21,555 nucleotides of DNA from an uncultured Collinsella sp. (GTDB taxonomy: Bacteria; Actinomycetota; Coriobacteriia; Coriobacteriales; Coriobacteriaceae), in contig CABQMC010000007.1 of the NCBI GenBank assembly GCA_902465115.1, forward strand, positions 1 to 21,555, read 5' to 3'. Under the pieces are notes generated by a model. The model saw only the letters and a list, made by a program, of their open reading frames with translations, was not told where the DNA came from and searched no databases. The position numbers and the translations under genes are program-made. This document shows positions 6,530 through 21,146 of this stretch, piece after piece (within the stretch, counting starts at the first letter, position 1; every line of letters begins with the position of its first letter).

Positions 6530-6592
6530 GAGGACTCCTTTCTGTTGGTTGTGTTGTGGAATAGGATTGTTGCCCGCGGAGGGGCTGGCGGG

Positions 6593-7483
6593 CTACAGGG
6601 TTCGCCCGAGCCTGAGATCGAGCTCGGTTGTGGGGCAGGCTGCCTGTTCGTGCGGCTCGCAAACGCCAAGGGCTCCAAAGCGATGGAGCGTTGCGGTGGG
6701 CGTGGTGTAGGCGAGCCGCAGCTGATGCTCGACAGGGGCACATCCGTCATTTTTGTAATGAGCCGCGTAGTACTGCGCGATGCTGGCGTTCATCTCGCTG
6801 CCATTGCGATGGCGCTCAAACTGGCGTCTGCAGGTCTCGATGATCTTTGCTACCGACTTGGGTGCCGTCGCGGGAACAAGGGCGAGATAGCCCTCAAATA
6901 GCTCGTTGATGCTCAGGAGGCACAGCAGGTCGATCAGCGTCCTTATGGCTGCTCCCTCGGCGGAAAAGTGCGCGGTCATGCGGTTATATCGGTTGCGGTC
7001 GACGATGGCCGCATGGGGTCTTGGAGTTTTCTGCCCCGTGGTCCCGGGCTTTTGCCGCGCCTGTGTATTGAGCTCGACGTTGCAGCGCTTGAGGCCGTCC
7101 AACGGAAGGAACAGTGCGGTGCGCAGGGTGTTCCGCTTGCTTTCGAGTTCATGACGCTCGTCGGGTTCCCATTCGAGCTTGAGTTTCGTGTCGAGCGCCG
7201 TAAGCATATGGGCTAGGCAGCCTACGGTAAGAACGTACGAATCGTTGTCGCGTTTTGGGGCATAGGGGTCTGTCAGCTTGCGAATGTCGGGGTCGCCCAT
7301 GATCTTTGTGCAGCGCTTCAGCAGTTGAGGGTGGTCGGCCAAGATCGTCGCGAGCGGTAGCGACGCGTAGTTCTTGATGGTCGCGGCGGCAAAGGCGGCG
7401 TCATATTCGTTTGCATATGCTCGCTCAATGCGGGCATCCAGAATGCTTTTCTTATCGCCGTCTTCAGCGTGGTGGTTTGTCAT
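6593..7483 (-). CDS. Unrecognised 296-aa protein of the ClpP/VirD4-like cassette
   Basis: I do not recognise this protein. ATG 7483 is preceded by TTGGAGAAGCT, a good ribosome site. The frame is open back to 7639, but that stretch is a His/Gln-rich repeat translation without a ribosome site. The product is soluble and mostly helical, with no signal peptide or clear membrane helix. A hydrophobic patch lies at 176-204 (around LIDLLCLLSINELFEGYLAL). The middle (about 140-170) is Pro/Lys/Thr-rich and probably a linker. Four Cys and many His are scattered without a zinc-finger spacing. It is the first gene of the three-gene minus-strand unit, 63 bp ahead of clpP, so it may be a substrate, adaptor or regulator of that pair. 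Confidence 0.6.
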   Translation of the reverse strand: MTNHHAEDGDKKSILDARIERAYANEYDAAFAAATIKNYASLPLATILADHPQLLKRCTKIMGDPDIRKLTDPYAPKRDNDSYVLTVGCLAHMLTALDTKLKLEWEPDERHELESKRNTLRTALFLPLDGLKRCNVELNTQARQKPGTTGQKTPRPHAAIVDRNRYNRMTAHFSAEGAAIRTLIDLLCLLSINELFEGYLALVPATAPKSVAKIIETCRRQFERHRNGSEMNASIAQYYAAHYKNDGCAPVEHQLRLAYTTPTATLHRFGALGVCEPHEQAACPTTELDLRLGRTL

Positions 7484-7534
7484 AGCTTCTCCAATCGGTT
7501 GATGTTCGTGCTGTTTGTTGATGTGTTGGTTGTC

Positions 7535-7570
7535 GTGAGTGATGTGCTTGCCGTGGGTGATGTGCTGACG
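7535..7570 (+). repeat. 18-bp direct repeat, two copies
   Basis: Units 7535-7552 and 7553-7570 share GTG(A/G)GTGATGTGCT and differ mainly at their ends. Looser variants of the GATGTG motif continue to the left (from about 7501). The repeat lies in the 5' leader of the minus-strand cassette, 50-90 bp upstream of its first ATG. Confidence 0.4.
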
Positions 7571-7800
7571 TTGGGGTGCTATGCGGTTTTCAATGAGCCC
7601 GTGAGGCAGTTGCTGCAGGGGCGGGATGGAACGGCCCATGCAAGGCGGAAGGCATCGTGCTCAAAATCGAGACAGCAATGTCCTGGGTGCCTCACATGTG
7701 GCAGTTACCTCATTAAGTTGTCATTGCGTTTGGGGTTGTACTTTGCCGATCTTCCTTCTCTTACACGCTAAAACTCAAACTTCATATGCTCGATCTACTT

Positions 7801-9688: not shown

Positions 9689-10432
9689 ATGCCACCGACT
9701 GAAGGACTAACTGACGGTAAAGCAGCGATACCGCTGTACCAACAGGTTATCGATATCATTAAAAACGAAATCAATTCCGGTGCCTACAAGGCGGGCGCGC
9801 GGATACCCAACGAATTCGAATTGGCTGAGAACTATAAAGTTGGCCGCGTTACCGTGCGACGCGCTATTGAGGAGCTCGTCCAGCAGGGCTATCTAACGAA
9901 GCGGCAGGGGAAAGGCACGTTTGTCAATGCCCCCAAGCTTAAGCGCAAGATTCGCCAGAAGGATGACGTCCAGAGTTTTTCGGACGCATGCCGCGTTAAC
10001 GGAATGGAGCCGGGGGCGTGCGTCATTTCGAGAAAGATACTGCCGGCAGATTCTACCGAAGCGCAGTTCTTTGGTGTTCCCGTTGGAACTGATTTGATTT
10101 GCGTTGAGCGTGTACGTACTGCCGATGGAGTCCCCGTCATGCTCGAGAACAACATATACGTTTACGAGGACAACGCCTATCTATCAACGGCACCTCTATC
10201 TAACCAATCCATTTTTGAGTTCGTGCGCAACCGAACGGGCCGCACGCCCGCGTTTACCGACCCGTGCACGCTCGAGATCGCGTGCGCGTCGCCCGAGGTC
10301 GCTCGGCTGTTGGCAGTTCCCGTTGGCGAACCCTTGTTTTATATGGAAGCCTTCTTTTTCGATGAGCAGCGGCGGCCGTTTATCATCGGTCGTCAGCGGA
10401 TCGTTGGGTCTCGCTACGTTTTTGACATCTAG
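9689..10432 (+). CDS. GntR-family regulator, HutC/UTRA type (probable operon regulator)
   Basis: Transcription regulator of 247 aa. The N-terminal winged helix (about 14-80) starts with the family hallmark PLYQQVIDIIKNEI and includes the recognition segment GRVTVRRAIEELVQQGYL and the wing KRQGKGTFV. Residues about 100-245 form a UTRA ligand domain (YLSTAPLSNQSIFEFVRNR-TGR, GEPLFYMEAFFFDEQRRP). UTRA regulators sense sugar phosphates or amino-acid derivatives; FrlR and FraR of known Amadori operons belong to this group. It lies directly before the ten-gene operon in the same orientation, with a hairpin between. Ligand and sites are inferred. The start ATG 9689 follows a GGGAGAGGG ribosome site. 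Confidence 0.9.
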   Translation: MPPTEGLTDGKAAIPLYQQVIDIIKNEINSGAYKAGARIPNEFELAENYKVGRVTVRRAIEELVQQGYLTKRQGKGTFVNAPKLKRKIRQKDDVQSFSDACRVNGMEPGACVISRKILPADSTEAQFFGVPVGTDLICVERVRTADGVPVMLENNIYVYEDNAYLSTAPLSNQSIFEFVRNRTGRTPAFTDPCTLEIACASPEVARLLAVPVGEPLFYMEAFFFDEQRRPFIIGRQRIVGSRYVFDI

Positions 10433-10443
10433 GACATTGCGAA

Positions 10444-10481
10444 TGGAAACGCCCGGTGGATCATCTCACCGGGCGTTTCCA
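10444..10481. terminator. 15-bp perfect inverted repeat after GntR gene
   Basis: Arms 10444-10458 and 10467-10481 pair perfectly around an 8-nt loop. The AAAC/GTTT ends of the stem supply a short T stretch on either strand, but no free T run follows. It most likely ends the gntR transcript, so the operon downstream needs its own promoter. Confidence 0.65.
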
Positions 10482-10542
10482 TACCGTTCACGGCGCGAAC
10501 ACAACCGTTCAACCGCGTTGCGGCAACCAGTTTGAAATTATC

Positions 10543-10571
10543 TTGATGAAGGAAAAAGCTGCTGGTAATCT
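10543..10571 (+). promoter_or_regulatory. Promoter of the Amadori-type operon
   Basis: TTGATG (10543-10548) and TAATCT (10566-10571) with exactly 17 bp between them, placed 80 bp before the carrier gene and after the gntR hairpin. The predicted start is near 10578. Confidence 0.55.
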
Positions 10572-10608
10572 ATGGGACGTCATAGAACGTTTGCCTTATG
10601 CAAACGTT
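10569..10608 (+). promoter_or_regulatory. Operator candidates: two inverted repeats over and after the start site
   Basis: The first is TCTATG (10569-10574) with CATAGA (10581-10586), overlapping the -10. The second has perfect 9-bp arms AACGTTTGC (10586-10594) and GCAAACGTT (10600-10608) on a 5-bp spacer. Positions over the -10 and just downstream of the predicted start suit repressor binding, probably by the adjacent GntR protein. TTATGCAAA in the second site resembles TTATGCTAA at 9612-9620, in front of gntR. Confidence 0.45.
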
Positions 10609-10650
10609 GAAGCGAGATGCGATGCAGTCTCGAGTTCTTTGGAGGTATCT

Positions 10651-12114
10651 ATGTCAGATACGAAGGCGAAGAAGACAAACAGACGTTTTAAGTTCAAATT
10701 ACCGCATGTCTATACGATCATGTTCTTGCTGATCGTTGTCTTTGCGGTCCTGACTTGGATCGTTCCCTCTGGTCAGTATCAGCGCAAGACGATTTCAACA
10801 GCGGCGGGCGAGCGTGAAGTCGCCGTTGCTGGAACCTATGAACAGGTCGATAAGAACTACACCGATTCCGAGACCGGCGAGACCATCAATCTGGGCCAGG
10901 ATATCTTCGCGGTTCTGCAAGCGCCCACCAAGGGTATCCAAGAGGCTGCCGACGTCGTTGCGTTCGTCTTATTGATTGGCGGATCGTTCGCGATCATCAC
11001 CAAGACCAACGCTTTGAATGCCGGCATGAGCCGTGTGATTAAAAAGCTCAAGAACAAGGACATCCTCATCATTCCCATCACGATGACATTGCTGTCCATT
11101 TGCGGCACTACGTTTGGCATGTCTGAGGAAGCCCTGCCGTTCTATGCCATCTTCATTCCCATCATGATGGGTATCGGTTATGACTCGATGACGGCATTCA
11201 TCATCTGCTTCCTTGGTCCTAACCTGGGATATTGTGCTTCGACCATCGACCCGTTTAATGTTTTGATCGCCCAAGGCATCATTGGCATCGAGGGCAATCC
11301 GCAACTGTGGCTGCGCGCCGTTTCTTGGGTCATCTTCACTGCCGTCGGTATCGCATGGGCCATGCGCTACGCCATGCGCGTCAAGAAAAACCCCGAGTCG
11401 TCCATTGTGTACGAGGACGATAAGCTCAAGCGTATTGAGTTTTCCGTGACCGATGCCTCCATCGAGGAAGAGTTCACTATCCGTCAGAAGCTCGTGCTTA
11501 TCGATTTTGCTTGCGGTATGGGCATTATCGTCTGGGGTCTTGTTACCCAGGGCTGGTACATGAATGAGATTTCCGCCGTGTTCCTTGGCATGGGCTTGCT
11601 TGCCGGTATCCTGGGCGGCCTTGACCAGCAGACGATCGCAGAGGAGTTCGTTAAGGGTCTCGCCGACTTTGCGTACGCTGCCATCGTTATCGGTATCGCT
11701 CGCGGTATTCTGGTCATCGCCGAGGGCGGCATGATCATCGACACCATCCTCCAGGCGCTCGCTACCGCGCTTGCCGGTGCACCCGCCGCCGTCTACACCA
11801 CGTTTATGTATATCGTCCTTGGCCTGCTCTCTTTGCTGGTTCCCTCGAGTTCTGGCCTGGCGGCGCTCACCATGCCCGTTATGGGCCCCCTGACCGAGCT
11901 CATGGGCCTCAATCCCGAGGCGGCCGTCACCGCGCTCCAGTTTGCCAACCAGACCATCAACACCATCAGCCCCGTGGCGGGCATGACGGTCGCCGGTCTT
12001 GCCGTGGCTAGGATTTCGTTTGGCCAATGGTGGAAGACCATTTGGAAGTTCTTCATTTTCATGGTCGTCTTTGGCGTGATTGTAACGGCAATCTCTGGCA
12101 TGCTTCCGGTGTAG
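10651..12114 (+). CDS. YfcC/DcuC-family membrane carrier
   Basis: Integral membrane transporter of 487 aa with about 11-12 hydrophobic helices, in the family of DcuC/YfcC anaerobic carriers. The first helix is at about 20-40 (VYTIMFLLIVVFAVLTWIVP), and residues 45-85 form the polar loop typical of YfcC proteins. Conserved segments include CGTTFGMSEEALPFYAIFIP, GPNLGYCASTIDPFNV and VPSSSGLAALTMPVMGPL. ATG 10651 follows GGAGG; an open frame back to 10456 covers promoter DNA and is not coding. As first gene of the operon it is the likely importer of the Amadori compound. Known precedent: the Salmonella fructose-asparagine (fra) locus uses a Dcu-type carrier, whereas frl of E. coli uses an amino-acid permease. 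Substrate is inferred only. Confidence 0.85.
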   Translation: MSDTKAKKTNRRFKFKLPHVYTIMFLLIVVFAVLTWIVPSGQYQRKTISTAAGEREVAVAGTYEQVDKNYTDSETGETINLGQDIFAVLQAPTKGIQEAADVVAFVLLIGGSFAIITKTNALNAGMSRVIKKLKNKDILIIPITMTLLSICGTTFGMSEEALPFYAIFIPIMMGIGYDSMTAFIICFLGPNLGYCASTIDPFNVLIAQGIIGIEGNPQLWLRAVSWVIFTAVGIAWAMRYAMRVKKNPESSIVYEDDKLKRIEFSVTDASIEEEFTIRQKLVLIDFACGMGIIVWGLVTQGWYMNEISAVFLGMGLLAGILGGLDQQTIAEEFVKGLADFAYAAIVIGIARGILVIAEGGMIIDTILQALATALAGAPAAVYTTFMYIVLGLLSLLVPSSSGLAALTMPVMGPLTELMGLNPEAAVTALQFANQTINTISPVAGMTVAGLAVARISFGQWWKTIWKFFIFMVVFGVIVTAISGMLPV

Positions 12115-12123
12115 GTGGTTGTG

Positions 12124-13707
12124 ATGTCTGATCGTTTGACGGTCCTGACGTCTAAGAGCGTCTTTACCGGTACGGGGGACCTGCCGTTTGAAGGTTTCGT
12201 AGCGGTCCGTGGCAATCGAATTGAGGCTGTTGGCACCAAGTGTGAGGTAGCTTCGTATTTGACCCAGGCGGACGAGGTAGTTGACCTGGGCGACCGCACT
12301 GTCATGCCTGGCCTGATCGATGTGCATACCTTCTATACAGGTTGGGCGCTGCGGACGTTGGGTTCTGATCTGTCCGGCATCGCTGATGCCAAAGAGGCTG
12401 TGTCGCTCTTGCGTGCGTGGAAAGAAGATCATCCGGATTGCGCGGCGGTTTTTGGCCACAACCTACCCGAAACGTTGGCATCGGATGCCGAGAACGCAAA
12501 TACGGCAGCTGTGTTTGACGATTGTTTTGGCGATATCCCCGTCGTCTGCTTTACATCGGGTGCGGAGACCTGCGTTCTCAATGCTGCCGCCAGTGCGCGA
12601 TACGGCTTTACACCCCAGGCGTGCTATGCCGAGAAGATCTGGCGCATGATGAGCGATTTCCTCGCGCTGCCCGAGGTGCGTGCCGGGTATTCGGACTACA
12701 TGAGCATGCTTAACGAGCGTGGCGTTACCGCCATCAAGGAAATGGCGTTTGATGACTACTACGGCTTTGCCGACGAAATGGCTCGCCGTGAGGAATCTGG
12801 TGAGCTGACGGTTCGCGTCTCTATGATGTCGCAGCCGGTGGGCGCCGGTGCAAATCTGGCATATGCCCGCGAGGCGCGAGAGCGCTTCCGGGGACCGTTC
12901 GTTCGTTTTTCTGGCTTCAACCGTATGACCGATCGCGGCGTATGGGCGGGGCTTGCCGAGATGATAGACCCCTATGAGGACTCGGCCGATGCGGGCGCTG
13001 CCGGCAAGACGGTCGTCGAGGAGCCAGAGTGGGATCTGATTGAGAACGAGCTGCGTGCAATTGATGCTGACGGCTTCCGATATTCCTTGCATTGCCAGGG
13101 CGATGGCGCCGTTCGTCGCACCGTGGCGCTCTATGCCTCGCTTCCTCGAGACGAGCATGGACGGATGCTTCGCCGCCATGCGATTACCGATCTCGAGAAC
13201 TCTGACCCGACCGACCTTGTCGAGTTTGGCAAGTTAGGTGGAATTTGCGAGGTCTATCCGCAGATTCTGACGCTGGACCGGCGCGAGGATTGCCTGTCGA
13301 TGATGCGTCGACAAATTGGCGAGACGCGACTTTTGCACAGCTGGAATCGCCGCGGCATGGAAGATTCCGGATGCACAGTGTGCTGCGGCACGGATTTGCC
13401 GCTGCTGATTCCGAGCCTGGGCGAGTCAATCTACAGCGCGTGCGGCGGATTCTTCGCCGACGGACTGCCCGTGAATGAGGTCAACACGCTGACGCTTGTC
13501 GAGCTCTTGCGCGCTTGGACTGCCGGGGGCGCGTACGATCTGATGCGCGAGGACGAGCTGGGTACGCTTGAGGTTGGCAAGCTTGCCGATATCTGCGTGC
13601 TCGATCGGGATGTGTTCGACCTCGATTATCGCGACGCACGCGATCTTGCGGTTGATATGACGATGTCGGACGGACAAATCGTGTTCGATCGAAATAAGGA
13701 GGCATAA
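12124..13707 (+). CDS. YtcJ-like amidohydrolase (amidohydrolase 3) with altered HxH
   Basis: A 527-aa member of the amidohydrolase-superfamily YtcJ branch. The N-terminal beta-sandwich part carries FVAVRGNRIEAVG and VVDLGDRTVMPGLIDVH. Further family segments are HCQGDGAVRRTV (H323), RHAITDLENSDPTDLVEFGKLGG (H352), GTDLPLLIPSLGESIY (D424) and GTLEVGKLADICVLDRD at the end. The metal-binding HxH is here H68-T69-F70, so one ligand is missing; whether it still binds metal is unclear. It starts 9 bp after the carrier gene (AGGTGG site overlapping the carrier stop, ATG 12124), implying coupled expression. Relatives hydrolyse amide bonds or N-formyl groups of diverse small molecules. A role on an N-substituted Amadori compound or its peptide form is only a guess. 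Confidence 0.8.
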   Translation: MSDRLTVLTSKSVFTGTGDLPFEGFVAVRGNRIEAVGTKCEVASYLTQADEVVDLGDRTVMPGLIDVHTFYTGWALRTLGSDLSGIADAKEAVSLLRAWKEDHPDCAAVFGHNLPETLASDAENANTAAVFDDCFGDIPVVCFTSGAETCVLNAAASARYGFTPQACYAEKIWRMMSDFLALPEVRAGYSDYMSMLNERGVTAIKEMAFDDYYGFADEMARREESGELTVRVSMMSQPVGAGANLAYAREARERFRGPFVRFSGFNRMTDRGVWAGLAEMIDPYEDSADAGAAGKTVVEEPEWDLIENELRAIDADGFRYSLHCQGDGAVRRTVALYASLPRDEHGRMLRRHAITDLENSDPTDLVEFGKLGGICEVYPQILTLDRREDCLSMMRRQIGETRLLHSWNRRGMEDSGCTVCCGTDLPLLIPSLGESIYSACGGFFADGLPVNEVNTLTLVELLRAWTAGGAYDLMREDELGTLEVGKLADICVLDRDVFDLDYRDARDLAVDMTMSDGQIVFDRNKEA

Positions 13708-13708
13708 G

Positions 13709-14560
13709 ATGTCTGAATCCAAACCGACGCTGCGCCGCGAGCAGATTGCGGGCATGAATATCCACTACATCATGTGGTCGCTCGATTACTTCCTTGATGT
13801 GCAGCAGCGTTTGGGCTTTGAGTCCATTGAGCTGTGGTGTGCAGAGCCGCATGTGACGCTCGACCACACGGGCTACTTTGAGGCTGAGGTCCTGGCGAAA
13901 AAGGCTGCAGACCGTGGGCTTAGGTATCGTACTCTGTGCCCCGAGAACGTTGTCTATCCTTGGCAGTACTGCGCACGCAAACCGCTGCATGAACAGCGCA
14001 GCCTGGCGTACTTTAAGCACGGCATTGAGCTTGCCGAGGTACTTGGGTGCGACCGTATGTCCGTCAACTCGGGCTGGGGCGACTGGGACGAGGACCGCGA
14101 GGAAGCCTGGAAGCGCAGCCGCGAGCACTTGTCCATTCTGGCGGAGTATGCCGGCGAGCACGGTCTGGTGCTTACGATGGAAAGTCTGCGTCCCGAGGAG
14201 AGCAACCTTGTGACGACGGTTTCCGATGCGAAGCGCATGATTGACGAGGTCGCGAGCCCGTACTTACAGCCCATGGTTGATACAACCGCGATGGGCGTTG
14301 CAGGCGAGACGCTCGAGGACTGGTTTGCCGCCTTTGGTGATGGGGCAATTCACGAGATGCACTTTATCGACGGTGACCCGTATGGCCATCTGGTGTGGGG
14401 CGATGGCAAGCACGATATGGACGCCTTCGTCGCCACGCTCAACGCCCATGGTTTCGACGGCATGCTGGGCCAGGAAATCACGGACGGTCGTTACTACGAT
14501 GATCCGGCGGCGGCAGATGCCAAGAACATGGCCGCATTCGAGAAATATCTGATTGACTAA
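13709..14560 (+). CDS. frlC: FrlC-like sugar-phosphate isomerase/epimerase
   Basis: TIM-barrel protein of the xylose isomerase-like/AP-endonuclease-2 family, 283 aa. Four metal ligands fit the family: E158 (LTMESLRPEESN), D191 (PMVDTT), H218 (EMHFIDGDP) and E256 (LGQEITDG). The segments LRPEESNLV and HFIDGDPYGHLVWGDGKHDM parallel E. coli FrlC, which interconverts psicoselysine and fructoselysine by 3-epimerisation. Here it probably brings the 3-epimer of the Amadori compound into the pathway. AAGGAGG precedes ATG 13709 by 6 nt, and the gene follows the previous stop by 1 bp. The exact substrate is inferred from the adjacent frlB and frlD. Confidence 0.78.
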   Translation: MSESKPTLRREQIAGMNIHYIMWSLDYFLDVQQRLGFESIELWCAEPHVTLDHTGYFEAEVLAKKAADRGLRYRTLCPENVVYPWQYCARKPLHEQRSLAYFKHGIELAEVLGCDRMSVNSGWGDWDEDREEAWKRSREHLSILAEYAGEHGLVLTMESLRPEESNLVTTVSDAKRMIDEVASPYLQPMVDTTAMGVAGETLEDWFAAFGDGAIHEMHFIDGDPYGHLVWGDGKHDMDAFVATLNAHGFDGMLGQEITDGRYYDDPAAADAKNMAAFEKYLID

Positions 14561-14621
14561 AACAACTATCGGCCACGCAGCCAACGTCATTGATTGCGGC
14601 CAAACAAGAAAGGAACTGGAT

Positions 14622-15590
14622 ATGAACGCACACGATCTGATCAAAGAGGCAATTGCCGAGAAGGGCAAGTTCGACAGCGTCTACTGGATTGCTTGCGGTG
14701 GCTCCATGATCGATTTGATCCCGGCCCATGAGCTTCTGCAGCGCGAGGCAACCACCTTTACTTCGTATATCTATACGGCTCGCGAGTTCGATATCATGCG
14801 TCCGCGTCGTCTGGGCGAGAAGTCCCTGGTCATCGCTTGTAGCCACAGTGGCAACACCCCTGAGGTCGTCGAGGGCTGCGAGATTGCCCTTGCTGCCGGC
14901 GCTACGGTGATCGCCCAGACCGACAACGCTGGATCTAAGATCGACACCGGTAAATGGACCACGTGGGTCTACCCGTGGGGCGAGGGCGTGCCGCAGGCCG
15001 AGGTCCCCGCTGGCATTTCGCTGTCGCTTGCGGCAGAGCTGCTCGATCAGCAGGAGGGTTACGCCGATCTTGCCGATATGTATGCCGGTATCGCCGAGAT
15101 GGATAAGATTCTTCCCCCGGCACGCGAGAAGGTAAATGCCGAGCTGGGCGATCGCTTTGCCAAGCTTTGCCAGGAGCACGAGTTCTTCTATATTCTGGGC
15201 AGCGGTCCCAACTTTAGCCAGACCTACGGTTTCGCTATCTGCTCTCTTATGGAGATGCAGTGGCAGCACTGCAGCTACATCCACTCTGCCGAGTACTTCC
15301 ATGGCCCCTTCGAGGCTACTCAGGATGGCGTATTTTACTTCCTGCAGATGGGCTCCAGCGAGTGCCGTGCTATGGACGAGCGCGCCCTGGCGTTCCTTAA
15401 GACGCATACCGATACGCTGATGGTGCTCGATGCCAAGGAGTACGGTATGGAAGCCGTGCCGGCGAGCGTCCGTGCCTATCTGGACCCGGTGCTGTTCTAC
15501 GCCATGAACTGCGAGCTGCGTGCCGCACGCGGCAAGGTGTTTGATCACGATCCCGATTTCCGTCGCTATATGGGTGTTGTCGAGTACTAG
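14622..15590 (+). CDS. frlB: FrlB-like SIS-domain deglycase (fructosamine-6-phosphate)
   Basis: Cytoplasmic SIS-domain enzyme of 322 aa, expected to split a 6-phosphorylated Amadori compound into glucose 6-phosphate and the free amine or amino acid. The first SIS domain has YWIACGGS (22-28) and SHSGNTPEVVEG (74-85). The second has ILGSGPN (191-197) and SAEYFHGPFE (222-231), matching SGEFRHGPLE in E. coli FrlB. The C-terminus FDHDPDFRRYMGVVEY closely follows the FrlB ending DHNPDERRYYGGLVEY. This end separates it from glucosamine-6-phosphate synthase and AgaS-type SIS proteins. ATG 14622 follows AGAAAGGA; an upstream TTG at 14553 overlapping frlC is less likely. Whether the substrate is fructoselysine, fructose-asparagine or another conjugate cannot be decided. 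Confidence 0.85.
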   Translation: MNAHDLIKEAIAEKGKFDSVYWIACGGSMIDLIPAHELLQREATTFTSYIYTAREFDIMRPRRLGEKSLVIACSHSGNTPEVVEGCEIALAAGATVIAQTDNAGSKIDTGKWTTWVYPWGEGVPQAEVPAGISLSLAAELLDQQEGYADLADMYAGIAEMDKILPPAREKVNAELGDRFAKLCQEHEFFYILGSGPNFSQTYGFAICSLMEMQWQHCSYIHSAEYFHGPFEATQDGVFYFLQMGSSECRAMDERALAFLKTHTDTLMVLDAKEYGMEAVPASVRAYLDPVLFYAMNCELRAARGKVFDHDPDFRRYMGVVEY

Positions 15591-15604
15591 AAGGAGCAAA
15601 GGCC

Positions 15605-16468
15605 ATGGCATTTAACGTTAACGCGCTCGGATTTGGCGACAACGTCGTCGATCGCTACGAGCATATCCACACCATGTATCCCGGCGGCAATGCGGTGAAC
15701 TTCGCCGTTTATGCCAAGAAATGCGGTGCCGCACGCTCCGCATACATGGGCATTTTTGGCAATGATGCCGCTGCCGAGCATGTCATTGCAAGCCTCGAGG
15801 ATGAGGGTATCGAGCTTGACAAGTGCGAGCAGATGATTGGCGAGAACGGAGCGGCTCGCGTGACCGTCGTTGACGGTGACCGTGTCTTCCTCGGCTCCAA
15901 CGAGGGCGGTATCCGTGGCGATGCGCGCTATGTCCTCGATCGCTTTGACCTTTCGTACATGAAGCAGTTCGATGTGGTTCATTCGGGCAACTATTGCTTT
16001 ACCGAGCGCGAGCTGCCCAAGCTGAAGGCTGCGGGCGTCACGGTCTCTTTTGACTTTTCGGACGACTCCACCGACGAGTACTACGAGCAGATTGCGCCCT
16101 ACGTCGATTTCGCTTTCTTTAGTGCGGCGGATGCCGCGAGTGAGGACGAGATTCGCGAACGTCTGGCATGGGTGAAGGGCCTGGGTCCGCGTTTTGTGTC
16201 GGCTACGGCGGGCGCCGAGGGCTGCATTGCTTACGACGGCGAGCGCTATTACCGCCAGCTGGCTAAACCGGTAACGGACATGAAGGACACCATGGGGGCG
16301 GGCGACTCGTTCCTCACCTCGTTTTTGATGTGCTATCTCGATTCCGCCAAGCGTGGTGAGGATGGCGCCGAGGCCATCGAGCGCGCGCTCGACTTTGCTG
16401 CCGGGTTTGCCTCGACCGTGTGCGGTATGGAAGGTTCTTGGGGCCACGGAGCGCCAATCGTCGAATAG
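15605..16468 (+). CDS. frlD: FrlD-like PfkB-family kinase (fructosamine 6-kinase)
   Basis: Ribokinase/PfkB kinase of 287 aa that should phosphorylate the Amadori compound on O6, the step before FrlB. It opens with GFGDNVVDRYEH, then PGGNAVNFAVYAKK (26-39; FrlD of E. coli has SGGNAVNVAVY), VSFDFSDD (147-154) and the PfkB signature DTMGAGDSF (228-236) with catalytic base D234. These FrlD-specific segments make it a better FrlD candidate than the second kinase downstream. AAGGAG lies 8 nt ahead of ATG 15605, 14 bp after frlB. A terminator-like hairpin follows it at 16539. Confidence 0.85.
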   Translation: MAFNVNALGFGDNVVDRYEHIHTMYPGGNAVNFAVYAKKCGAARSAYMGIFGNDAAAEHVIASLEDEGIELDKCEQMIGENGAARVTVVDGDRVFLGSNEGGIRGDARYVLDRFDLSYMKQFDVVHSGNYCFTERELPKLKAAGVTVSFDFSDDSTDEYYEQIAPYVDFAFFSAADAASEDEIRERLAWVKGLGPRFVSATAGAEGCIAYDGERYYRQLAKPVTDMKDTMGAGDSFLTSFLMCYLDSAKRGEDGAEAIERALDFAAGFASTVCGMEGSWGHGAPIVE

Positions 16469-16538
16469 CTTAAGAAAGCGTACGGCGGTCTGGCTATGAG
16501 GCCTTGGACAGCCGATGCAAAACAATAAGCAAAATGCG

Positions 16539-16573
16539 AAAAGGGGGCTCGCCATGTGGTGGGTCCCCTTTTG
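16539..16573 (+). terminator. Terminator-like hairpin inside the operon
   Basis: AAAAGGGG (16539-16546) pairs with CCCCTTTT (16565-16572), with further pairing inside the loop region (16548-16553 with 16558-16563, two wobbles). The stem carries its own T run. It lies between frlD and the second kinase, 17 bp before the latter's ATG. If it works, it would reduce expression of the five distal genes relative to frlBCD. Confidence 0.6.
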
Positions 16574-16589
16574 AACATTGGAGAAGACC

Positions 16590-17390
16590 ATGGGTATTAA
16601 AGCGTGCGCGGCTGGTTTTTGCTGCGCGGACGTCTATCAGAACATCGGCGTGTTCTATCCGACTGGTAACGGCATTGACTGGGGTATCCATCTTGCACGA
16701 ATGGGCGTTTCGGTATCCGCCGTGTCGGTTGTCGGCAAGGACGAGTACGGAGACAAGATGAGAGAGGCGCTGGCCGCTGAGGGGTTCGATATCTCACATC
16801 TGCGGGTGGAGGATGGCGACACCTCGGTGATGCTCATGGCATTGAAAGACGGCGTCGATCGCGTGCATCTCGAGGCAATCGATGGCGTAATGGAGACATA
16901 TCGTCCGAATGAAGATGACCGGGCGTTTATCCTAGAGCATGACATCATTCATACCGACCTGTTTGGCAATTGTTTGGACCTCCTGCCCGAATGGCATGAT
17001 GCGGGCAAGACGGTGGTAATGGACTTCTCGGTGTTCAGCCAGGATCCCGAATATGCCTGTGAGACTCATTTTCCTTACGTAGACTACGCGTTCATGTCGT
17101 TTGAAGAGGACACTCCGGAGCTACGAGACTGGGTGCGCCACGTGCAGGAATTGGGACCGCGCGTTGCGGTCGCCACGCTTGGCGAGAAGGGAAGCATTGC
17201 CTATGACGGTGAGCGCTTCTATGAGTGCGGGATCGTACCGGCGGAGAAGGTCGTTAACACCGTGGGTGCCGGCGACTCGTATATTGCCGGGTTTACCAAG
17301 GGCGTGATCGATGGCCTTGATATTCCGGCGTGTATGAAAGCGGGCGCTGAGCTGTCGTCCCGAGTGATTGGTTCGTTTGAGCCGTACTAG
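16590..17390 (+). CDS. Second PfkB-family kinase (FrlD paralogue)
   Basis: PfkB/ribokinase-family kinase of 266 aa, related to the preceding frlD. Both carry the LGPR-x-(x)n-GEKGSIAYDGERFY type segment, and the signature here is NTVGAGDSY (223-231) with catalytic D229. The N-terminal substrate region differs: YPTGNGIDWGIHLA replaces PGGNAVNFAVYA, losing the first Gly of the GGN motif and the AVN core. A different sugar substrate, or a substrate with a different head group, is therefore likely. ATG 16590 follows GGAGAAG; a TTG at 16578 is the longest open start but is less likely. It begins the distal five-gene block, after the internal hairpin. Confidence 0.8.
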   Translation: MGIKACAAGFCCADVYQNIGVFYPTGNGIDWGIHLARMGVSVSAVSVVGKDEYGDKMREALAAEGFDISHLRVEDGDTSVMLMALKDGVDRVHLEAIDGVMETYRPNEDDRAFILEHDIIHTDLFGNCLDLLPEWHDAGKTVVMDFSVFSQDPEYACETHFPYVDYAFMSFEEDTPELRDWVRHVQELGPRVAVATLGEKGSIAYDGERFYECGIVPAEKVVNTVGAGDSYIAGFTKGVIDGLDIPACMKAGAELSSRVIGSFEPY

Positions 17391-17417
17391 GGTCAAATGC
17401 CTGGAAAGGAGTGCGAA

Positions 17418-18278
17418 ATGGTTATCGACATGTTGGTCCATCCTATGCTCTACGGCGAGATCTGTAAGCCGGGTGATGATCCTGATGGATTCGGCTTTTG
17501 GTCACGAGAATTTGGTATGGGGCATATGGGCCCCATGGATTGGGATGAGCTTCAAGTCGAGATGGACGTCTGCGATGTGCGGAAGAGCGTGCTCATGCCG
17601 CTCGATGTAACCACGGCATGCGGAGGGCACTTTGGCACCAATGACCAGATTGCCATGCTGGTTGCCGCGCATCCCGATCGTCTGTGGGGATTTGCGAGCG
17701 TAGACCCGCAGGTGAGCGGTGCCGCAGACGAATTGGAGCGCGCCTTTACCGAGTTGGGGGCAAAGGGGCTTTGCCTGCATCCTGCAAAGCAGGGTTTTGT
17801 CCCCGATGATGCTGTGGCCGAGCCGCTTTACGAGCTGTGCGAGCGCTATAACAAGCCGGTGGTTTTCCATGCCGGTATGTCTTGGGAACCTGGCGCAGAG
17901 CTCTCGCGCAGTAACCCGCTTGCATTTGAGCACACAATCGCAACGCATCCAAATGTGCGCTTTAGTTTGACCCACTTTGGCTGGCCCTGGGTGCGCGAGA
18001 CCGTGGCGATGCTGCTCAAGTATCCCAACTGCTACACGGACACCTCTATCACTTACATCGATTCGCCCGAGGAGATGATGCAGCGTCTTTTCACGGTCGA
18101 TATGGGGCCGCTGTGGTATGAGCGCGCGCTATCGCACCAAGTGATGTTCGCCAGCAATACGCCGCGCTTCCGTGCATTCAAACTCAAGCGGGCGCTCGAT
18201 ACCGTGCCCATGCGCGATGATGCGCGAGAAAGGCTCTACTGGGGTAATGCCCTGCGTTTTCTTGAAGGGGATGAGTAA
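17418..18278 (+). CDS. Amidohydrolase-2 family protein with altered metal site
   Basis: TIM-barrel amidohydrolase-related protein of 286 aa, of the type containing ACMSD and 2-pyrone-4,6-dicarboxylate lactonase. Recognisable parts are the first strand MVIDMLVHP, LWGFASVDPQ (89-98), KGLCLHP (116-122), VVFHAGMSW (H151), LTHFGWPW (H186) and the last-strand FASNTPRF. The usual DxHxHP is DMLVHP (first His replaced by Leu6, His8 kept), and the catalytic Asp of the GSD motif is Asn247. A canonical binuclear site is thus unlikely; a single-metal or metal-independent lactonase or decarboxylase is possible. ATG 17418 follows AAAGGAG, 27 bp after the second kinase. The substrate is unknown; context suggests a product of the same carbohydrate route. 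Confidence 0.75.
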   Translation: MVIDMLVHPMLYGEICKPGDDPDGFGFWSREFGMGHMGPMDWDELQVEMDVCDVRKSVLMPLDVTTACGGHFGTNDQIAMLVAAHPDRLWGFASVDPQVSGAADELERAFTELGAKGLCLHPAKQGFVPDDAVAEPLYELCERYNKPVVFHAGMSWEPGAELSRSNPLAFEHTIATHPNVRFSLTHFGWPWVRETVAMLLKYPNCYTDTSITYIDSPEEMMQRLFTVDMGPLWYERALSHQVMFASNTPRFRAFKLKRALDTVPMRDDARERLYWGNALRFLEGDE

Positions 18279-18280
18279 AC

Positions 18281-18709
18281 ATGGTGACGCTCGAGACATT
18301 GAGCTATCTATCGACTGCTCCGGACCAGTTCATCGATATTACCGAGGACGTGCACGCTGCTATCGAACGCAGCTCGGTGACCAATGGCTTGGCAGCGATT
18401 ATTTTGTCGCATACGACCTGTGGAATCGTGGTAAACGAGGGGCTGCCCTGCGTGGAGACGGATCTTATGGAGACGCTTGATCGCATCGCCCCACTCGATG
18501 CCCCCTATGCGCATGCACACTTCCTGCCGAGCTATGGAGCTACCGGCAACAACTCCTGTGGGCATATCAAGAGCATGATTTGTGGAAACAGTTGCTTCTT
18601 TCCCGTCCAAGATGGCCACATCGTGTGCGGAGGCGCCCAGAACATCTATCTTGCGGAGTTTGACGGTCCGCAGAAGCGAAAAGTGTACGTGGAGGTGCTG
18701 GGGGAGTAA
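18281..18709 (+). CDS. YjbQ-family protein (UPF0047)
   Basis: Small protein of 142 aa in the YjbQ/UPF0047 family. Signature parts are LSHTTCGIVVNE (42-53), AHAHFLPSYG, NNSCGHIKSMICGNSCFFPVQDG (91-112) and AEFDGPQKRKVYVEV at the end. The conserved His residues (H44, H80, H95) likely form the metal site. The usual GTWQ is GGAQ here. E. coli YjbQ shows weak thiamine-phosphate synthase activity, but the physiological role of the family is not settled. It starts 2 bp after the preceding stop with GAAGGGGA ahead, so it is firmly part of the operon. No thiamine gene is nearby, so a thiamine role is doubtful. Confidence 0.82.
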   Translation: MVTLETLSYLSTAPDQFIDITEDVHAAIERSSVTNGLAAIILSHTTCGIVVNEGLPCVETDLMETLDRIAPLDAPYAHAHFLPSYGATGNNSCGHIKSMICGNSCFFPVQDGHIVCGGAQNIYLAEFDGPQKRKVYVEVLGE

Positions 18710-18742
18710 CGTCCCTGCAATAACCCTACGAAGGAGCACGTT

Positions 18743-19552
18743 ATGTCGTTTTTAACCTCGATGTTCAAGACCGAAAAGCCGGTTATCGGAATGCTGCACC
18801 TGCGTCCTCTGCCGGGCGATCCACTGTATTACCCGGGCGGAAGCGTGTCGCAGGTCGTGGAAGCCGCCAAGCGCGATCTCGAGGCGTTGCAGCAGGGCGG
18901 TGTCGATGGCATTTTGATTACCAATGAGCTCTCGATGCCCTATGAGCAGCACGTTTCTCCCTCAACCCTTGCATCGATGGGCTATGTAATCGGGGCTCTA
19001 TCCCATGATCTGTCGACCCCTTGGGGAGCTGAGGCTATTTACGATGGTGATGCCACAATCGAGCTGTGCGCTGCCGTCGACGCGCAGTTCACGCGCTGCA
19101 ATTTTTGCGGTGCCTGGGCCGGTGATCTTGGGCTGATTAATCGAGATTTCGCTCACACCATGCGTCGCAAGGCGGCGCTGCGCTTGGACGACCTCAAGCT
19201 TTTTCACTTCATCACGAGCGAGGGGGAGGTGTATCTTAACGGCCGCGCGACTGCGGACATTGCCGATTCACTTCTCTTTAATTGCCTACCGGATGCGATG
19301 GTCATCGGCGGTTCGGCTGCCGGTCGTGGCGCTTCGGGCGAGCTTGCCGATGAGGTCCGCGAGCGTGTTGGAGAAGTACCCGTGGTATGTGGCACCGGTT
19401 GTCGCGAAAATACCGTGGCTGACGTATTTGCTCACTACGATGGCGCGTTTGTCGGCACCTGCTTAAAGCGCGACGGAAAGCTGGATGCCCCGGTTGATGT
19501 TGAGCGGGTAGCTCGTTTTATGGCTGCCGCTCGTACGGCGCGAGGGGAGTAG
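18743..19552 (+). CDS. BtpA/SgcQ-family TIM-barrel protein
   Basis: A 269-aa protein of the BtpA family. The opening KPVIGMLHLRPLPGDPLY (12-29), the QGGVDGILITNE segment (51-62), VIGGSAAGRGASGE (187-200) and CGTGCRENTVADVFAHYDGAFVGTCLKRDGK (216-246) are family hallmarks and read as a phosphate-binding TIM barrel. BtpA is known for a photosystem I stability effect in cyanobacteria, and SgcQ sits in an uncharacterised sugar PTS cluster of E. coli. The presence beside sugar kinases here supports an enzymatic role on a phosphorylated sugar, but no reaction is established. AAGGAG precedes ATG 18743 at 7 nt spacing. Confidence 0.82.
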   Translation: MSFLTSMFKTEKPVIGMLHLRPLPGDPLYYPGGSVSQVVEAAKRDLEALQQGGVDGILITNELSMPYEQHVSPSTLASMGYVIGALSHDLSTPWGAEAIYDGDATIELCAAVDAQFTRCNFCGAWAGDLGLINRDFAHTMRRKAALRLDDLKLFHFITSEGEVYLNGRATADIADSLLFNCLPDAMVIGGSAAGRGASGELADEVRERVGEVPVVCGTGCRENTVADVFAHYDGAFVGTCLKRDGKLDAPVDVERVARFMAAARTARGE

Positions 19553-19558
19553 GCACCT

Positions 19559-21076
19559 ATGGCGCTCTATCTGGGTATTGATATTGGGACAAGCGCCTCT
19601 AAAGGCGTATTAATCGATGATCGATGCAACATCGTTTGCCAAGCCTCTTGTGGACATGAGACGGACAACCCGTGTGATGGATGGTACCAGCATGATGCGG
19701 AGGCAGTTTGGTGGGGCGATTTTTGCCGCTTGTCGCGCGAGCTGGTGGCGCGATCGGGGGTTAACGCGGCACAGATCGGATGCGTGGGCCTTTCCGCATT
19801 GGGTTGCGACTGTGTGCCGGTCGATACCGAGTGCAACGCGCTGGCGCCCGCGATTTTGTATGGAGTCGATGCACGTTCGAAGCCGCAGATTGACGAGCTT
19901 CTTTCCGAATATGGGTCAGATTGCGCACGCGAGCTTTTCGGGCACGATCCCTGTTCGTCAGATATTGCTCCCAAGATCTTGTGGTTTAAGGAGAATATGC
20001 CCGAGGTGCACGAACGTGCCGCGAAGTTCCTGACGGCGTCATCGTTTCTATGCGCAAAGTTGACGGGGCGTTTTACGGTGGACCGTTATTTGGCGGAGGA
20101 TTTTCTTCCCCTATACGACCGCTACACCTGGAAGGTTGATGCTCGGGAATGTGCTCGTTTCTGCCGGCCTGACCAGATGGCGGAGGTGATGTCGGCTACC
20201 GATATTGCCGGGGTGATTACGCAGCGTGCGGCTGAGGCGACGGGGCTCGCGGCAGGGACACCTGTCTTAGTGGGAACGGGCGACTCTGGTGCCGAGGCCA
20301 TTTCGACGGGTGTATTCCGTCCCGGCGATATGATGGTTCAGTTGGGGAGTACGGCGTATTTCATCTACCTAGCTGATCATATGATCGATGATGCCCGCCT
20401 GTGGCCAGGGACGTTTATCATTCCCGGAACTTATGGGATCTGCGCGGGGACCAATACGGCGGGTGCGCTCACATCGTGGCTGCGCCAAGAGCTGTATCGC
20501 GATGCCGTGGAGGCCGAGGACCACGGTGGCCCCGATGCATATTCGGTTATGGCGCATGATGCCGCCGACGTGGCGCCGGGTGCCGATGGGCTCCTGTGTC
20601 TGCCGTACTTTGCGGGGGAGCGTACTCCGCTCAACGATCCCGAGGCGCGTGGCGTCTTCTTTGGCCTGACCGGAAGGCATACGCGAGCCCATATGGTTCG
20701 CGCCGCCTTGGAAGGCGTCGCGTATACCGTTGCATCCCATGTCGACATTATCGAGCGAGAGCATGGACTGCCAATTGGGCGCATTATGCTTGTCGGAGGT
20801 GGAACCAAGAATCCAGTTTGGATGCAGGCTATCGCCGACGTATGTGGGCGCGAGGTCTCGGTTGCCAAGGTTACGGTGGGCGCATGCTTCGGTGATGCCA
20901 TCATGGCAGCTCTCGCAGGTGGCGCCTATGCATCATGGGATGAGCTCGCCCAAGTCCTTGGCGTTGCGCAAACAATCGTGCCCGATATGGCTGCCCACGA
21001 GTTATATGCGTCACGTCGTCATATCTTCGACGAATTGTATGCACGCAACCGTGATCTCATGCACGAATTGGTGTAA
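19559..21076 (+). CDS. FGGY-family carbohydrate kinase (xylulokinase-like)
   Basis: Sugar kinase of 505 aa, full length for the FGGY family. It has the ATP-site start YLGIDIGTSASKG (4-16), GWYQHDAEAVW (41-51), GTGDSGAEAIS (239-249) with the catalytic Asp242, PYFAGERTPLNDPEARGVFFGL (349-370) and VGGGTKNPVWMQAIADV (412-428). These place it near xylulokinase and YoaC/YgcE-type kinases rather than glycerol kinase. The sugar cannot be named. It starts 6 bp after the previous stop, is last in the operon, and is followed by a hairpin at 21104. With two PfkB kinases already present, it implies a third phosphorylation step or a separate substrate. Confidence 0.88.
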   Translation: MALYLGIDIGTSASKGVLIDDRCNIVCQASCGHETDNPCDGWYQHDAEAVWWGDFCRLSRELVARSGVNAAQIGCVGLSALGCDCVPVDTECNALAPAILYGVDARSKPQIDELLSEYGSDCARELFGHDPCSSDIAPKILWFKENMPEVHERAAKFLTASSFLCAKLTGRFTVDRYLAEDFLPLYDRYTWKVDARECARFCRPDQMAEVMSATDIAGVITQRAAEATGLAAGTPVLVGTGDSGAEAISTGVFRPGDMMVQLGSTAYFIYLADHMIDDARLWPGTFIIPGTYGICAGTNTAGALTSWLRQELYRDAVEAEDHGGPDAYSVMAHDAADVAPGADGLLCLPYFAGERTPLNDPEARGVFFGLTGRHTRAHMVRAALEGVAYTVASHVDIIEREHGLPIGRIMLVGGGTKNPVWMQAIADVCGREVSVAKVTVGACFGDAIMAALAGGAYASWDELAQVLGVAQTIVPDMAAHELYASRRHIFDELYARNRDLMHELV

Positions 21077-21103
21077 TGCTGCCGAATTGTACTGCCTTCC
21101 AAT

Positions 21104-21146
21104 AGGGGCTGCGTTGTGCGATTCGCATGCCCCTTGGCATTTTTGC
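21104..21146 (+). terminator. Probable terminator at the end of the operon
   Basis: AGGGGC-TGCG (21104-21113) pairs with CGCA-TGCCCCT (21124-21134) with one bulged T, followed by TTGGCATTTTTG. It lies 27 bp after the FGGY kinase and before the convergent TatD gene. The T run is offset from the stem, so strength is uncertain. Confidence 0.5.

What the first reader, a model, noticed from the sequence alone, without database searches (positions are those of the whole stretch)
9689..21076. Extended Amadori-compound operon with a Dcu-type carrier and five extra genes
Seen: GntR/UTRA gene, then ten tightly spaced genes whose core is FrlC-, FrlB- and FrlD-like (DHDPDFRRYMGVVEY end of FrlB; GGNAVN and DTMGAGDSF of FrlD). 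Known: FrlD and FrlB convert fructoselysine to lysine plus glucose 6-phosphate, FrlC epimerises psicoselysine, and fra of Salmonella uses a Dcu-type carrier for fructose-asparagine. As I recall, Collinsella intestinalis has been reported to consume fructoselysine. Inference: this operon takes up a glycated amino acid or peptide, with two amidohydrolases, YjbQ, BtpA-like, a second PfkB and an FGGY kinase adding steps that neither frl nor fra has.
Basis: partly seen in the sequence, partly recalled or inferred. Interest (0 to 1): 0.8.

Follow-up and report, generated by a model that had tools for sequence, protein, structure and literature searches.

The report
Two-part Amadori-sugar operon in Collinsella
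A gut bacterium carries one gene cluster that looks built to eat browned-food compounds (sugar stuck to amino acids); one half is a known kind of pathway, and the other half is a strain-variable set of five genes, several of unclear function, that may extend it.

Summary
The genes are there as described: a GntR/UTRA regulator plus ten co-directional genes in a Collinsella genome. The operon has two modules. Core: YfcC-type carrier, Amidohydro_3 protein, FrlC-like epimerase, SIS deglycase, kinase PfkA; the carrier, amidohydrolase, SIS, kinase and regulator families recur together in Klebsiella and Enterococcus. Accessory: PfkB, Amidohydro_2, YjbQ, BtpA, FGGY; present in 5 and absent as a block in 6 of 11 sampled relatives with a near-identical core. 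An Amadori pathway is well supported by homology; the substrate is unknown. Corrections: PfkB, not PfkA, passes the FrlD cut-off; PfkA groups with FraD; the SIS is nearer FraB than FrlB by identity, though trees leave this open; the carrier is unrelated to FraA; Amidohydro_3 belongs to the core and lacks two histidines kept by outside relatives; Amidohydro_2 has an ACMSD/LigJ-like fold with altered metal ligands. A PfkB-type kinase, Amidohydro_2 and YjbQ recur together in another family of the order and in Niallia, and Amidohydro_2-YjbQ lie near frlD and SIS in Enterococcus faecium, which ties poorly understood families to glycation-product catabolism. New variant of a known kind.

The parts
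9689..10432 (+). GntR/UTRA transcriptional regulator
   Evidence: Pfam UTRA 81 bits, GntR 72 bits
10443..10482 (+). terminator-like hairpin after the regulator (17-pair stem, -31.4 kcal/mol)
10543..10571 (+). possible operon promoter, TTGATG-17-TAATCT with TG-n before the second hexamer
   Evidence: read by eye from the letters; a similar layout in L037, L038, L041; not called by the generic promoter scan
10571..10594 (+). operator-like element TATGGGACGTCATAGAACGTTTGC
   Evidence: similar elements picked by eye at the same place in L037, L038, L039, L041, L064; best site in window (31.1 against 10.5 for the next), but it was one of the seven sites that made the matrix
10651..12114 (+). carrier, PF03606 DcuC/YfcC-type (core)
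   Evidence: Pfam 370 bits; NCBIfam YfcC 329, cut-off 500 not met; 46-50% to Klebsiella/Enterococcus YfcC
12115..13707 (+). Amidohydro_3 protein (core), HxF instead of HxH
13709..14560 (+). FrlC-like sugar epimerase (core)
   Evidence: AP_endonuc_2; NCBIfam FrlC 95 bits, cut-off 305 not met; E, D, H, E columns shared with E. coli FrlC (that these bind the metal is recalled)
14622..15590 (+). FraB-like SIS deglycase (core); E234 and H250 of the 345-aa ORF match FraB E214 and H230
15605..16468 (+). PfkA, FraD-clade kinase (core), partner of the SIS gene
16539..16572 (+). hairpin (15-pair stem, -24.9 kcal/mol) between the kinases, at the module border
16578..17390 (+). PfkB, FrlD-equivalog kinase (accessory module)
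   Evidence: 266.5 bits, cut-off 247; clade with kinases of other Amidohydro_2-YjbQ loci
17397..18278 (+). Amidohydro_2 protein, ACMSD/LigJ-like fold, first metal-site His replaced by Leu (accessory)
18281..18709 (+). YjbQ/UPF0047 protein (accessory)
   Evidence: TIGR00149 103.8 bits, cut-off 67.75
18743..19552 (+). BtpA/SgcQ protein, TIM barrel (accessory)
   Evidence: TIGR00259 187 bits, cut-off 153.4; model pLDDT 91.0; fold matches
19559..21076 (+). FGGY sugar kinase, xylulokinase-like (accessory)
   Evidence: Pfam FGGY_N and FGGY_C; XylB 276 bits, cut-off 380 not met
16470..21133 (+). extent of the accessory module: absent as a block from six related genomes
   Evidence: (first part)

Best explanation
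One operon behind a GntR/UTRA gene, made of two Amadori-type modules. Core: the YfcC-type carrier imports a glycated amino acid; PfkA phosphorylates the fructosamine (at C6, by analogy with FraD and FrlD); the SIS enzyme splits the 6-phosphate into the free amino acid and glucose 6-phosphate; the FrlC-like enzyme feeds in the C3 epimer; the Amidohydro_3 protein acts on the amino-acid side, in the slot that asparaginase FraE fills in fra, but with altered metal chemistry. Accessory module: a FrlD-type kinase with Amidohydro_2 and YjbQ takes a further class of glycation product (epsilon-linked, epimeric or already modified), and the FGGY kinase plus the BtpA barrel phosphorylate and then isomerise or split a ketose released from it. 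Shown by computation: gene content, synteny, homology, catalytic positions of the SIS, kinase clades, presence/absence of the module, recurrent linkage of accessory genes. Inferred: control by the GntR protein, every substrate, the phosphorylation positions, and the roles of both amidohydrolase-fold proteins, YjbQ, BtpA and FGGY.
For: SIS keeps both FraB catalytic positions; by identity it is nearest Klebsiella (43%), E. raffinosus (38%), FraB (36%), then FrlB (29%). PfkA is in a 100/100 clade of 17 rows with FraD and, inside it, in a 94/93 group of 14 with FraD and the Klebsiella/Enterococcus kinases. The five families GntR, YfcC, amidohydrolase, SIS, kinase recur together in Klebsiella and Enterococcus and in family f2 of the same order (L044-L046). 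PfkB passes the FrlD cut-off and sits in a 100/99 clade of 8 rows whose other members lie within one gene of Amidohydro_2 or YjbQ. In f2 the kinase of that clade in L059 scores 404 (FrlD cut-off 247) and the epimerase between kinase and Amidohydro_2 in L063 scores 452 (FrlC cut-off 305). Niallia has SIS-AH2-YjbQ-kinase in a row and a PfkA-like kinase 3.5 kb on. E. faecium DO has AH2-YjbQ-permease-GntR-frlD-GntR-SIS. Equal contig lengths above 2 kb link AH2-YjbQ (17 of 104, jittered null mean 0.27), AH2-BtpA (11 of 104, null 0.54) and BtpA-YjbQ (9 of 98, null 0.26).
Against: No enzyme or growth data. SIS scores 109 against a FrlB cut-off of 430. Trees leave the order of the SIS subgroups open, and E. 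coli FrlB is on a branch of 3.86. In f2 loci L059, L061 and L062 the SIS gene is roughly 10 kb from the module kinase, and the one put in the tree (L061) is of another SIS clade; in L063 none is in the stretch read. L062 shows no FGGY or BtpA. BtpA-FGGY occurs away from Amadori genes in Thermus and Rhizobium. The E. faecium DO match to Amidohydro_2 covers residues 91-291 only, so that copy may be incomplete, and its frlD falls outside the PfkB clade. The Leclercia SIS-kinase pair sits with an ABC binding protein, not YfcC. Amidohydro_2 of this lineage may be impaired. The contig link uses equal length as a proxy, on lists cut at 120.
Confidence: 0.5

Rival explanations
1. Two unrelated pathways share a transcript: the core handles an Amadori compound, while PfkB-AH2-YjbQ-BtpA-FGGY degrades a different rare sugar or sugar acid (pentulose-like) and was simply placed behind it.
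For: BtpA-FGGY pairs lie with SDR, ABC and epimerase genes in Thermus and with ABC and other genes in Rhizobium; FGGY is xylulokinase-like; BtpA has an aldolase/epimerase-type barrel; L063 has the module with RPE-like and second FGGY genes and no SIS in the stretch read; a hairpin separates the modules.
Against: PfkB passes the FrlD cut-off; AH2 and YjbQ recur with SIS and FrlD-type genes in E. faecium DO and Niallia; FrlC- and FrlD-equivalog proteins sit beside them in family f2.
Confidence: 0.28
2. A glycated-peptide system: the two amidohydrolases are peptidases or amidases that trim glycated di- or oligopeptides before the kinase and deglycase act.
For: Amidohydro_3 sits in the core, in a locus type where fra has asparaginase FraE; a dipeptidase model is among its weak NCBIfam matches (39.6 bits, cut-off 500).
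Against: Amidohydro_3 has HxF in 17 of 17 cluster members (five of them near-identical orthologues) against HxH in 4 of 4 outside relatives, and D instead of H at a second position in 8 of 8 against 4 of 4; Amidohydro_2 folds like decarboxylases and LigJ hydratase; the carrier is not of a peptide-transporter family.
Confidence: 0.1
3. The accessory module is a decaying remnant with little function, and only the core matters.
For: Absent from 6 of 11 close relatives; only parts remain in G043 and G022; Amidohydro_2 lost the HxH motif in this lineage.
Against: All five reading frames are open and 96-100% identical in the four copies read in one piece (L033, L050, L072, L073); gene order is kept in G172 at 67-74% identity. 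Selection on the codons was not measured.
Confidence: 0.12

Closest known systems
fra locus of Salmonella (fraR-fraBDAE, fructose-asparagine)
   Same: GntR regulator, SIS deglycase with the same E/H pair (36% to FraB), kinase of the same clade (40% to FraD), a secondary carrier
   Different: unrelated carrier, no asparaginase, extra Amidohydro_3 and epimerase, plus the five-gene module
Klebsiella/Enterococcus SIS-PfkB-amidohydrolase-YfcC-GntR set (no published function seen in our searches)
   Same: all five families; SIS 38-43%, PfkA 44-47%, YfcC 46-50%, amidohydrolase 23-32% with the same HxF
   Different: no epimerase annotated in those loci, different gene order, no accessory module; the amidohydrolase gene of L079 ends early beside IS16
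frl operon of E. coli (frlABCD-frlR)
   Same: SIS, epimerase and kinase roles; the accessory PfkB passes the FrlD cut-off
   Different: FrlB and FrlC cut-offs not met, no FrlA-type permease
E. faecium DO plasmid 2 and Niallia pMEGANia loci
   Same: Amidohydro_2-YjbQ with a FrlD-type kinase and a SIS gene; a second kinase in Niallia, an Amidohydro_3 gene in E. faecium DO
   Different: SIS of another clade (nearest solved relatives of its L061 member are 8glr and 2a3n), other transporters, no BtpA or FGGY seen in the stretches read, Amidohydro_2 of E. faecium DO perhaps incomplete
sgc region of E. coli (SgcQ)
   Same: BtpA/SgcQ protein
   Different: PTS genes and a ribulose-phosphate-epimerase-like gene, no SIS or FrlD in the stretch read

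Membership tests
fra (fructose-asparagine) system | FraB-type SIS deglycase with catalytic Glu and His | tested here: met
   E234/H250 align with FraB E214/H230; which residues are catalytic is partly recalled; [quoted passage not shown]
fra (fructose-asparagine) system | SIS closer to FraB than to FrlB in a tree | tested here: inconclusive
   support 53/66 with FrlB included; inner order open without it
fra (fructose-asparagine) system | FraD-clade kinase | tested here: met
   PfkA in a 100/100 clade with FraD; FraD itself is on a long branch
fra (fructose-asparagine) system | FraA (Dcu) carrier | tested here: not met
   27% over 37 aa, E 0.06
fra (fructose-asparagine) system | FraE asparaginase | tested here: not met
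   no asparaginase family among the 11 genes
fra (fructose-asparagine) system | cleavage of 6-phosphofructose-aspartate | not testable with these tools
   needs an enzyme assay
frl (fructoselysine) system | FrlB equivalog (NF008481, cut-off 430) | tested here: not met
   109.1 bits
frl (fructoselysine) system | FrlD equivalog (NF007321, cut-off 247) | tested here: met
   PfkB 266.5; PfkA 185.2 does not reach it
frl (fructoselysine) system | FrlC equivalog (NF007360, cut-off 305) | tested here: not met
   95.3 bits
frl (fructoselysine) system | FrlA amino-acid permease or Frl ABC importer | tested here: not met
   the only carrier among the 11 genes is PF03606
gfr (glucoselysine/fructoselysine PTS) system | PTS enzyme II genes in the operon | tested here: not met
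   none of the 11 genes is a PTS component; gfr layout read in PMC12675984 (passages)
Amidohydrolase superfamily, canonical metal site | HxH and the second H of RHxxxH in Amidohydro_3 | tested here: not met
   HxF in 17 of 17 cluster rows and D at the second place in 8 of 8; H at both in 4 of 4 controls; that these bind metal is recalled
Amidohydrolase superfamily, canonical metal site | HxH and beta-8 Asp in Amidohydro_2 | tested here: not met
   window has LxH; HxH in 26 of 31 aligned rows; Asn at the last position in 31 of 31, Asp in the three f2 rows; ligand positions recalled from ACMSD
xylulokinase | XylB equivalog TIGR01312, cut-off 380 | tested here: not met
   276 bits

The most novel reading that the evidence does not exclude
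FrlD-type kinase, Amidohydro_2 and YjbQ, often with BtpA and FGGY, form an unrecognised branch of glycation-product catabolism spread over Actinomycetota and Bacillota. In it YjbQ (annotated as a 'secondary thiamine-phosphate synthase') and the ACMSD-fold protein carry out a carbon-carbon or carbon-nitrogen bond step on a phosphorylated Amadori or Heyns derivative that SIS deglycases cannot process, and BtpA handles the ketose phosphate that results. That would give both families a catabolic role.
Probability: 0.27. Interest if true: 0.75.

Novelty: new variant of a known kind. Interest (0 to 1): 0.5.

Why it matters
Amadori compounds are prominent products of cooking and of infant-formula processing, and which gut species consume them is an open nutritional question. 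A strain-variable five-gene block in a human gut genus offers a natural with/without comparison. It also adds a recurrent genomic context for YjbQ and BtpA proteins, whose catabolic roles are unsettled, and warns that two 'amidohydrolases' in such loci should not be annotated as amide hydrolases without a test.

Tried and rejected
Rejected: 'Dcu carrier as in fra' (no detectable similarity to FraA); 'first kinase is FrlD'; 'all extras form one set'; 'module imported recently, odd composition' (GC of core and module genes overlaps, GC3 of the module is only slightly lower, and core and module genes are about equally far from G172).

Led nowhere: scan of viral contigs with the Amidohydro_2 alignment found no relative; Rfam found nothing at gathering scores; the generic promoter scan gave 4 hits against 7.0 expected and missed the promoter proposed here; BtpA has no PDB relative by sequence at E 0.001 and its model matches many barrels at close Z (19.0 for KDPGal aldolase, about 17 for dozens of others), so no specific activity is claimed; Clostridial loci could not be opened, so linkage there rests on equal contig lengths. 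The second half compared sequences with themselves through a script fault and is not used. One search was repeated more fully. In the first SIS tree E. coli FrlB sat on a very long branch; a rebuild without it still left the order of the FraB, Klebsiella, Enterococcus and Collinsella subgroups open.
Full report
WHAT IS THERE. The window is Collinsella DNA (98% and 97% protein matches in a C. aerofaciens strain and an uncultured Collinsella; own assembly not held, nearest genome G001). A codon-based gene caller trained on this window put the carrier start at 10651 and the SIS start at 14622. Gaps among the ten structural genes are 0, 1, 61, 14, 109, 6, 2, 33 and 6 bp. The 218-bp space after the regulator holds a strong hairpin (10443-10482), a possible promoter (10543) and an operator-like element (10571-10594); similar elements were picked by eye at the same place in L037, L038, L039, L041 and L064. 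The matrix for that element includes the window site itself; no second site of similar score exists in the window, so the module has no visible operator of this type. A 15-pair hairpin (16539-16572) sits between the kinases.

THE OPERON IS MODULAR. In the 197-genome sample of the class, 11 genomes carry the SIS gene at 98-99% identity. Five of these 11 have PfkB-AH2-YjbQ-BtpA-FGGY behind the core (G001, G109, G167, G168 in one piece, G149 split over two contigs) and six lack it (G077, G101, G107, G133, G141, G178), with core proteins 96-100% identical to the window. In the six, window bases 16470-21133 are replaced by roughly 100-260 bp (first part). Genome searches found no AH2 orthologue and no BtpA in these six (five are listed without a match, G178 is absent from the match lists). 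In the genus, PfkB at 98-99% is in 6 of 43 genomes, plus one at 65%. L041 from G172 has all eleven genes in order at 48-80% protein identity, which suggests that the full set is old and the module was lost more than once; insertion is not excluded. G022 keeps PfkB-AH2-YjbQ without BtpA-FGGY, and G043 keeps BtpA and an FGGY piece only, so the module itself has two parts.

THE CORE. PfkA, not PfkB, follows the SIS gene in each core locus that has a kinase there. SIS identity is 43% to Klebsiella, 38% to Enterococcus raffinosus, 36% to FraB and 29% to FrlB; PfkA is 47%, 44%, 40% and 36% to the corresponding kinases. PfkA is in a 100/100 clade of 17 rows with FraD. For the SIS the tree separates a clade of five (Niallia, E. 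faecium DO, L061, two L036 copies) from the rest; without E. coli FrlB the remaining 22 rows, with FraB, the Klebsiella/Enterococcus SIS and the window, form one group at 100/100, but their inner order is open, and with FrlB included these 22 stand apart from it at only 53/66. The FraB catalytic pair (positions 214 and 230 as counted here; residue roles partly recalled) is present as E234 and H250, and PDB entry 9otu carries alanine at the Glu position. The Klebsiella locus (SIS, kinase, amidohydrolase, YfcC, GntR) and Enterococcus loci contain the same five families, so the core is an already widespread arrangement; a Leclercia plasmid has the SIS-kinase pair with an ABC binding protein instead. 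NCBI's YfcC model, named 'putative basic amino acid antiporter', is the best match but below its cut-off (329 of 500); a basic amino-acid moiety is a hint, no more.

THE ACCESSORY MODULE. PfkB passes the FrlD equivalog cut-off (266.5 of 247) and PfkA does not (185.2). PfkB falls in a 100/99 clade of 8 rows with kinases that lie within one gene of AH2 or YjbQ in Niallia, G172, G022 and four genomes of family f2 of the same order (f2 is unnamed, Atopobiaceae by my guess). In f2 the kinase of L059 scores 404 (FrlD cut-off 247) and the epimerase next to AH2 in L063 scores 452.5 (FrlC cut-off 305); there is an amino-acid permease in L059, and SIS genes roughly 10 kb from the kinase in L059, L061 and L062, the L061 one being of another SIS clade; L063 has no SIS in the stretch read, and L062 no FGGY or BtpA. 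Niallia pMEGANia has SIS-AH2-YjbQ-kinase, then an ABC-type set (my reading of unannotated ORFs) and a PfkA-like kinase. E. faecium DO plasmid 2 has an Amidohydro_3 gene, AH2, YjbQ, amino-acid permease, GntR, frlD, GntR and SIS; its AH2 match covers query residues 91-291 only, and its frlD passes the cut-off (296) but lies outside the PfkB clade. In the protein collection AH2, YjbQ and BtpA relatives share contigs of identical length far above a jittered null (17 of 104, 11 of 104 and 9 of 98 against 0.27, 0.54 and 0.26; six lengths shared by all three; lists of the best 120 each); Ruminiclostridium sufflavum LY28_03077 and LY28_03068 are a named example. Against this, BtpA-FGGY pairs also occur without Amadori genes, so that part may serve a released ketose or another sugar.

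AMIDOHYDROLASE-FOLD PROTEINS. Amidohydro_3 of these loci has HxF where four outside relatives have HxH (17 of 17, five of them near-identical orthologues, against 4 of 4) and D where the outside relatives have the second H of RHxxxH (8 of 8 against 4 of 4). Amidohydro_2 has Leu for the first His in the window and its closest relatives, HxH in 26 of 31 aligned rows, and Asn near the C-terminal metal position in 31 of 31; the three f2 sequences keep Asp. Its model (pLDDT 90.8) matches BB4693, LigJ hydratase, carboxyvanillate decarboxylase and ACMSD. Hydrolysis of amides or peptides is therefore not a safe reading for either. The metal-ligand positions are recalled from ACMSD and typical amidohydrolases.

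LITERATURE. Searches of the held open-access library showed, in the titles and abstract starts listed (18 of 18, 2 of 2, 25 of 30, 30 of 107, 13 of 13, 15 of 15, 15 of 34 and 12 of 23 papers), none on this combination of genes or on YjbQ or BtpA in Amadori catabolism. Passages only were read of PMC9749803, PMC9609667, PMC4072780, PMC4941530, PMC12051030, PMC12675984, PMC12476023, PMC4697335 and PMC5270733. Subscription journals are mostly not held, so absence is not proof.

VERDICT. Observation confirmed, interpretation partly supported. A FraB/FraD-like Amadori core of a widespread kind carries a strain-variable FrlD-type module with several poorly understood enzymes. New variant of a known kind.

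Noticed in passing
G109, G143, G178 and other Collinsella genomes: Collinsella genomes hold many SIS-family matches (10 in G109, G143 and G178, where only 10 candidates were scored), including 82-84% and 72-76% paralogues of the window SIS; G109 has the 99%, 82% and 74% copies together. The lineage seems to have expanded such deglycases.
   Followed up: partly
L036 6077-7138 and 11226-12287 (G001:C1 about 1506000 and 1511000): Two SIS proteins with identical aligned sequence a few kb apart, around a FrlC-like gene and other genes.
   Followed up: no
L064, L065, L067, L068, L069 just after PfkA; shorter form in L066: Inverted-repeat, MITE-like element with TGCCAAATATGAGTACT ends where the module is missing; 6, 8 and 4 copies of the end (up to 1 mismatch) in G001, G141, G168, none in G022 and G172, reversed control none. 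The window keeps a GGCATTTTTGCCCAC piece after FGGY that resembles its outer end.
   Followed up: partly
window 4615-7639, - strand: Type IV coupling-protein-like ORF (T4SS-DNA_transf) plus ORFs of 205 and 348 aa between the phosphoglucose isomerase gene and the HAD genes; ORFs of the same two lengths lie near the HAD genes in L064, L066-L069 and L070. A mobile-element remnant perhaps.
   Followed up: no
window 2004-2579, + strand: Short iron-alcohol-dehydrogenase match (191 aa), perhaps a truncated gene.
   Followed up: no
L079 10585-13071 (E. faecium plasmid): The amidohydrolase gene of the core set is shorter than its relatives and ends next to an annotated IS16 copy; described only.
   Followed up: no
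G133:C77:19503 and G077:C33:88629: The roughly 75% SIS paralogue shows one TAA inside the aligned stretch in these two genomes, so it may be decaying there.
   Followed up: no
L034 13238-17088 (G001): The roughly 75% SIS paralogue has a GntR gene (60-61% to the window regulator) in front of it, behind a RecQ-type helicase, and no ORF in the stretch read resembles either window kinase.
   Followed up: no
L075 18751-20763 (E. faecium DO): A beta-galactosidase gene follows the SIS gene of the AH2-YjbQ-frlD locus, which would fit lactulosyl-lysine from milk as a source of fructoselysine.
   Followed up: no
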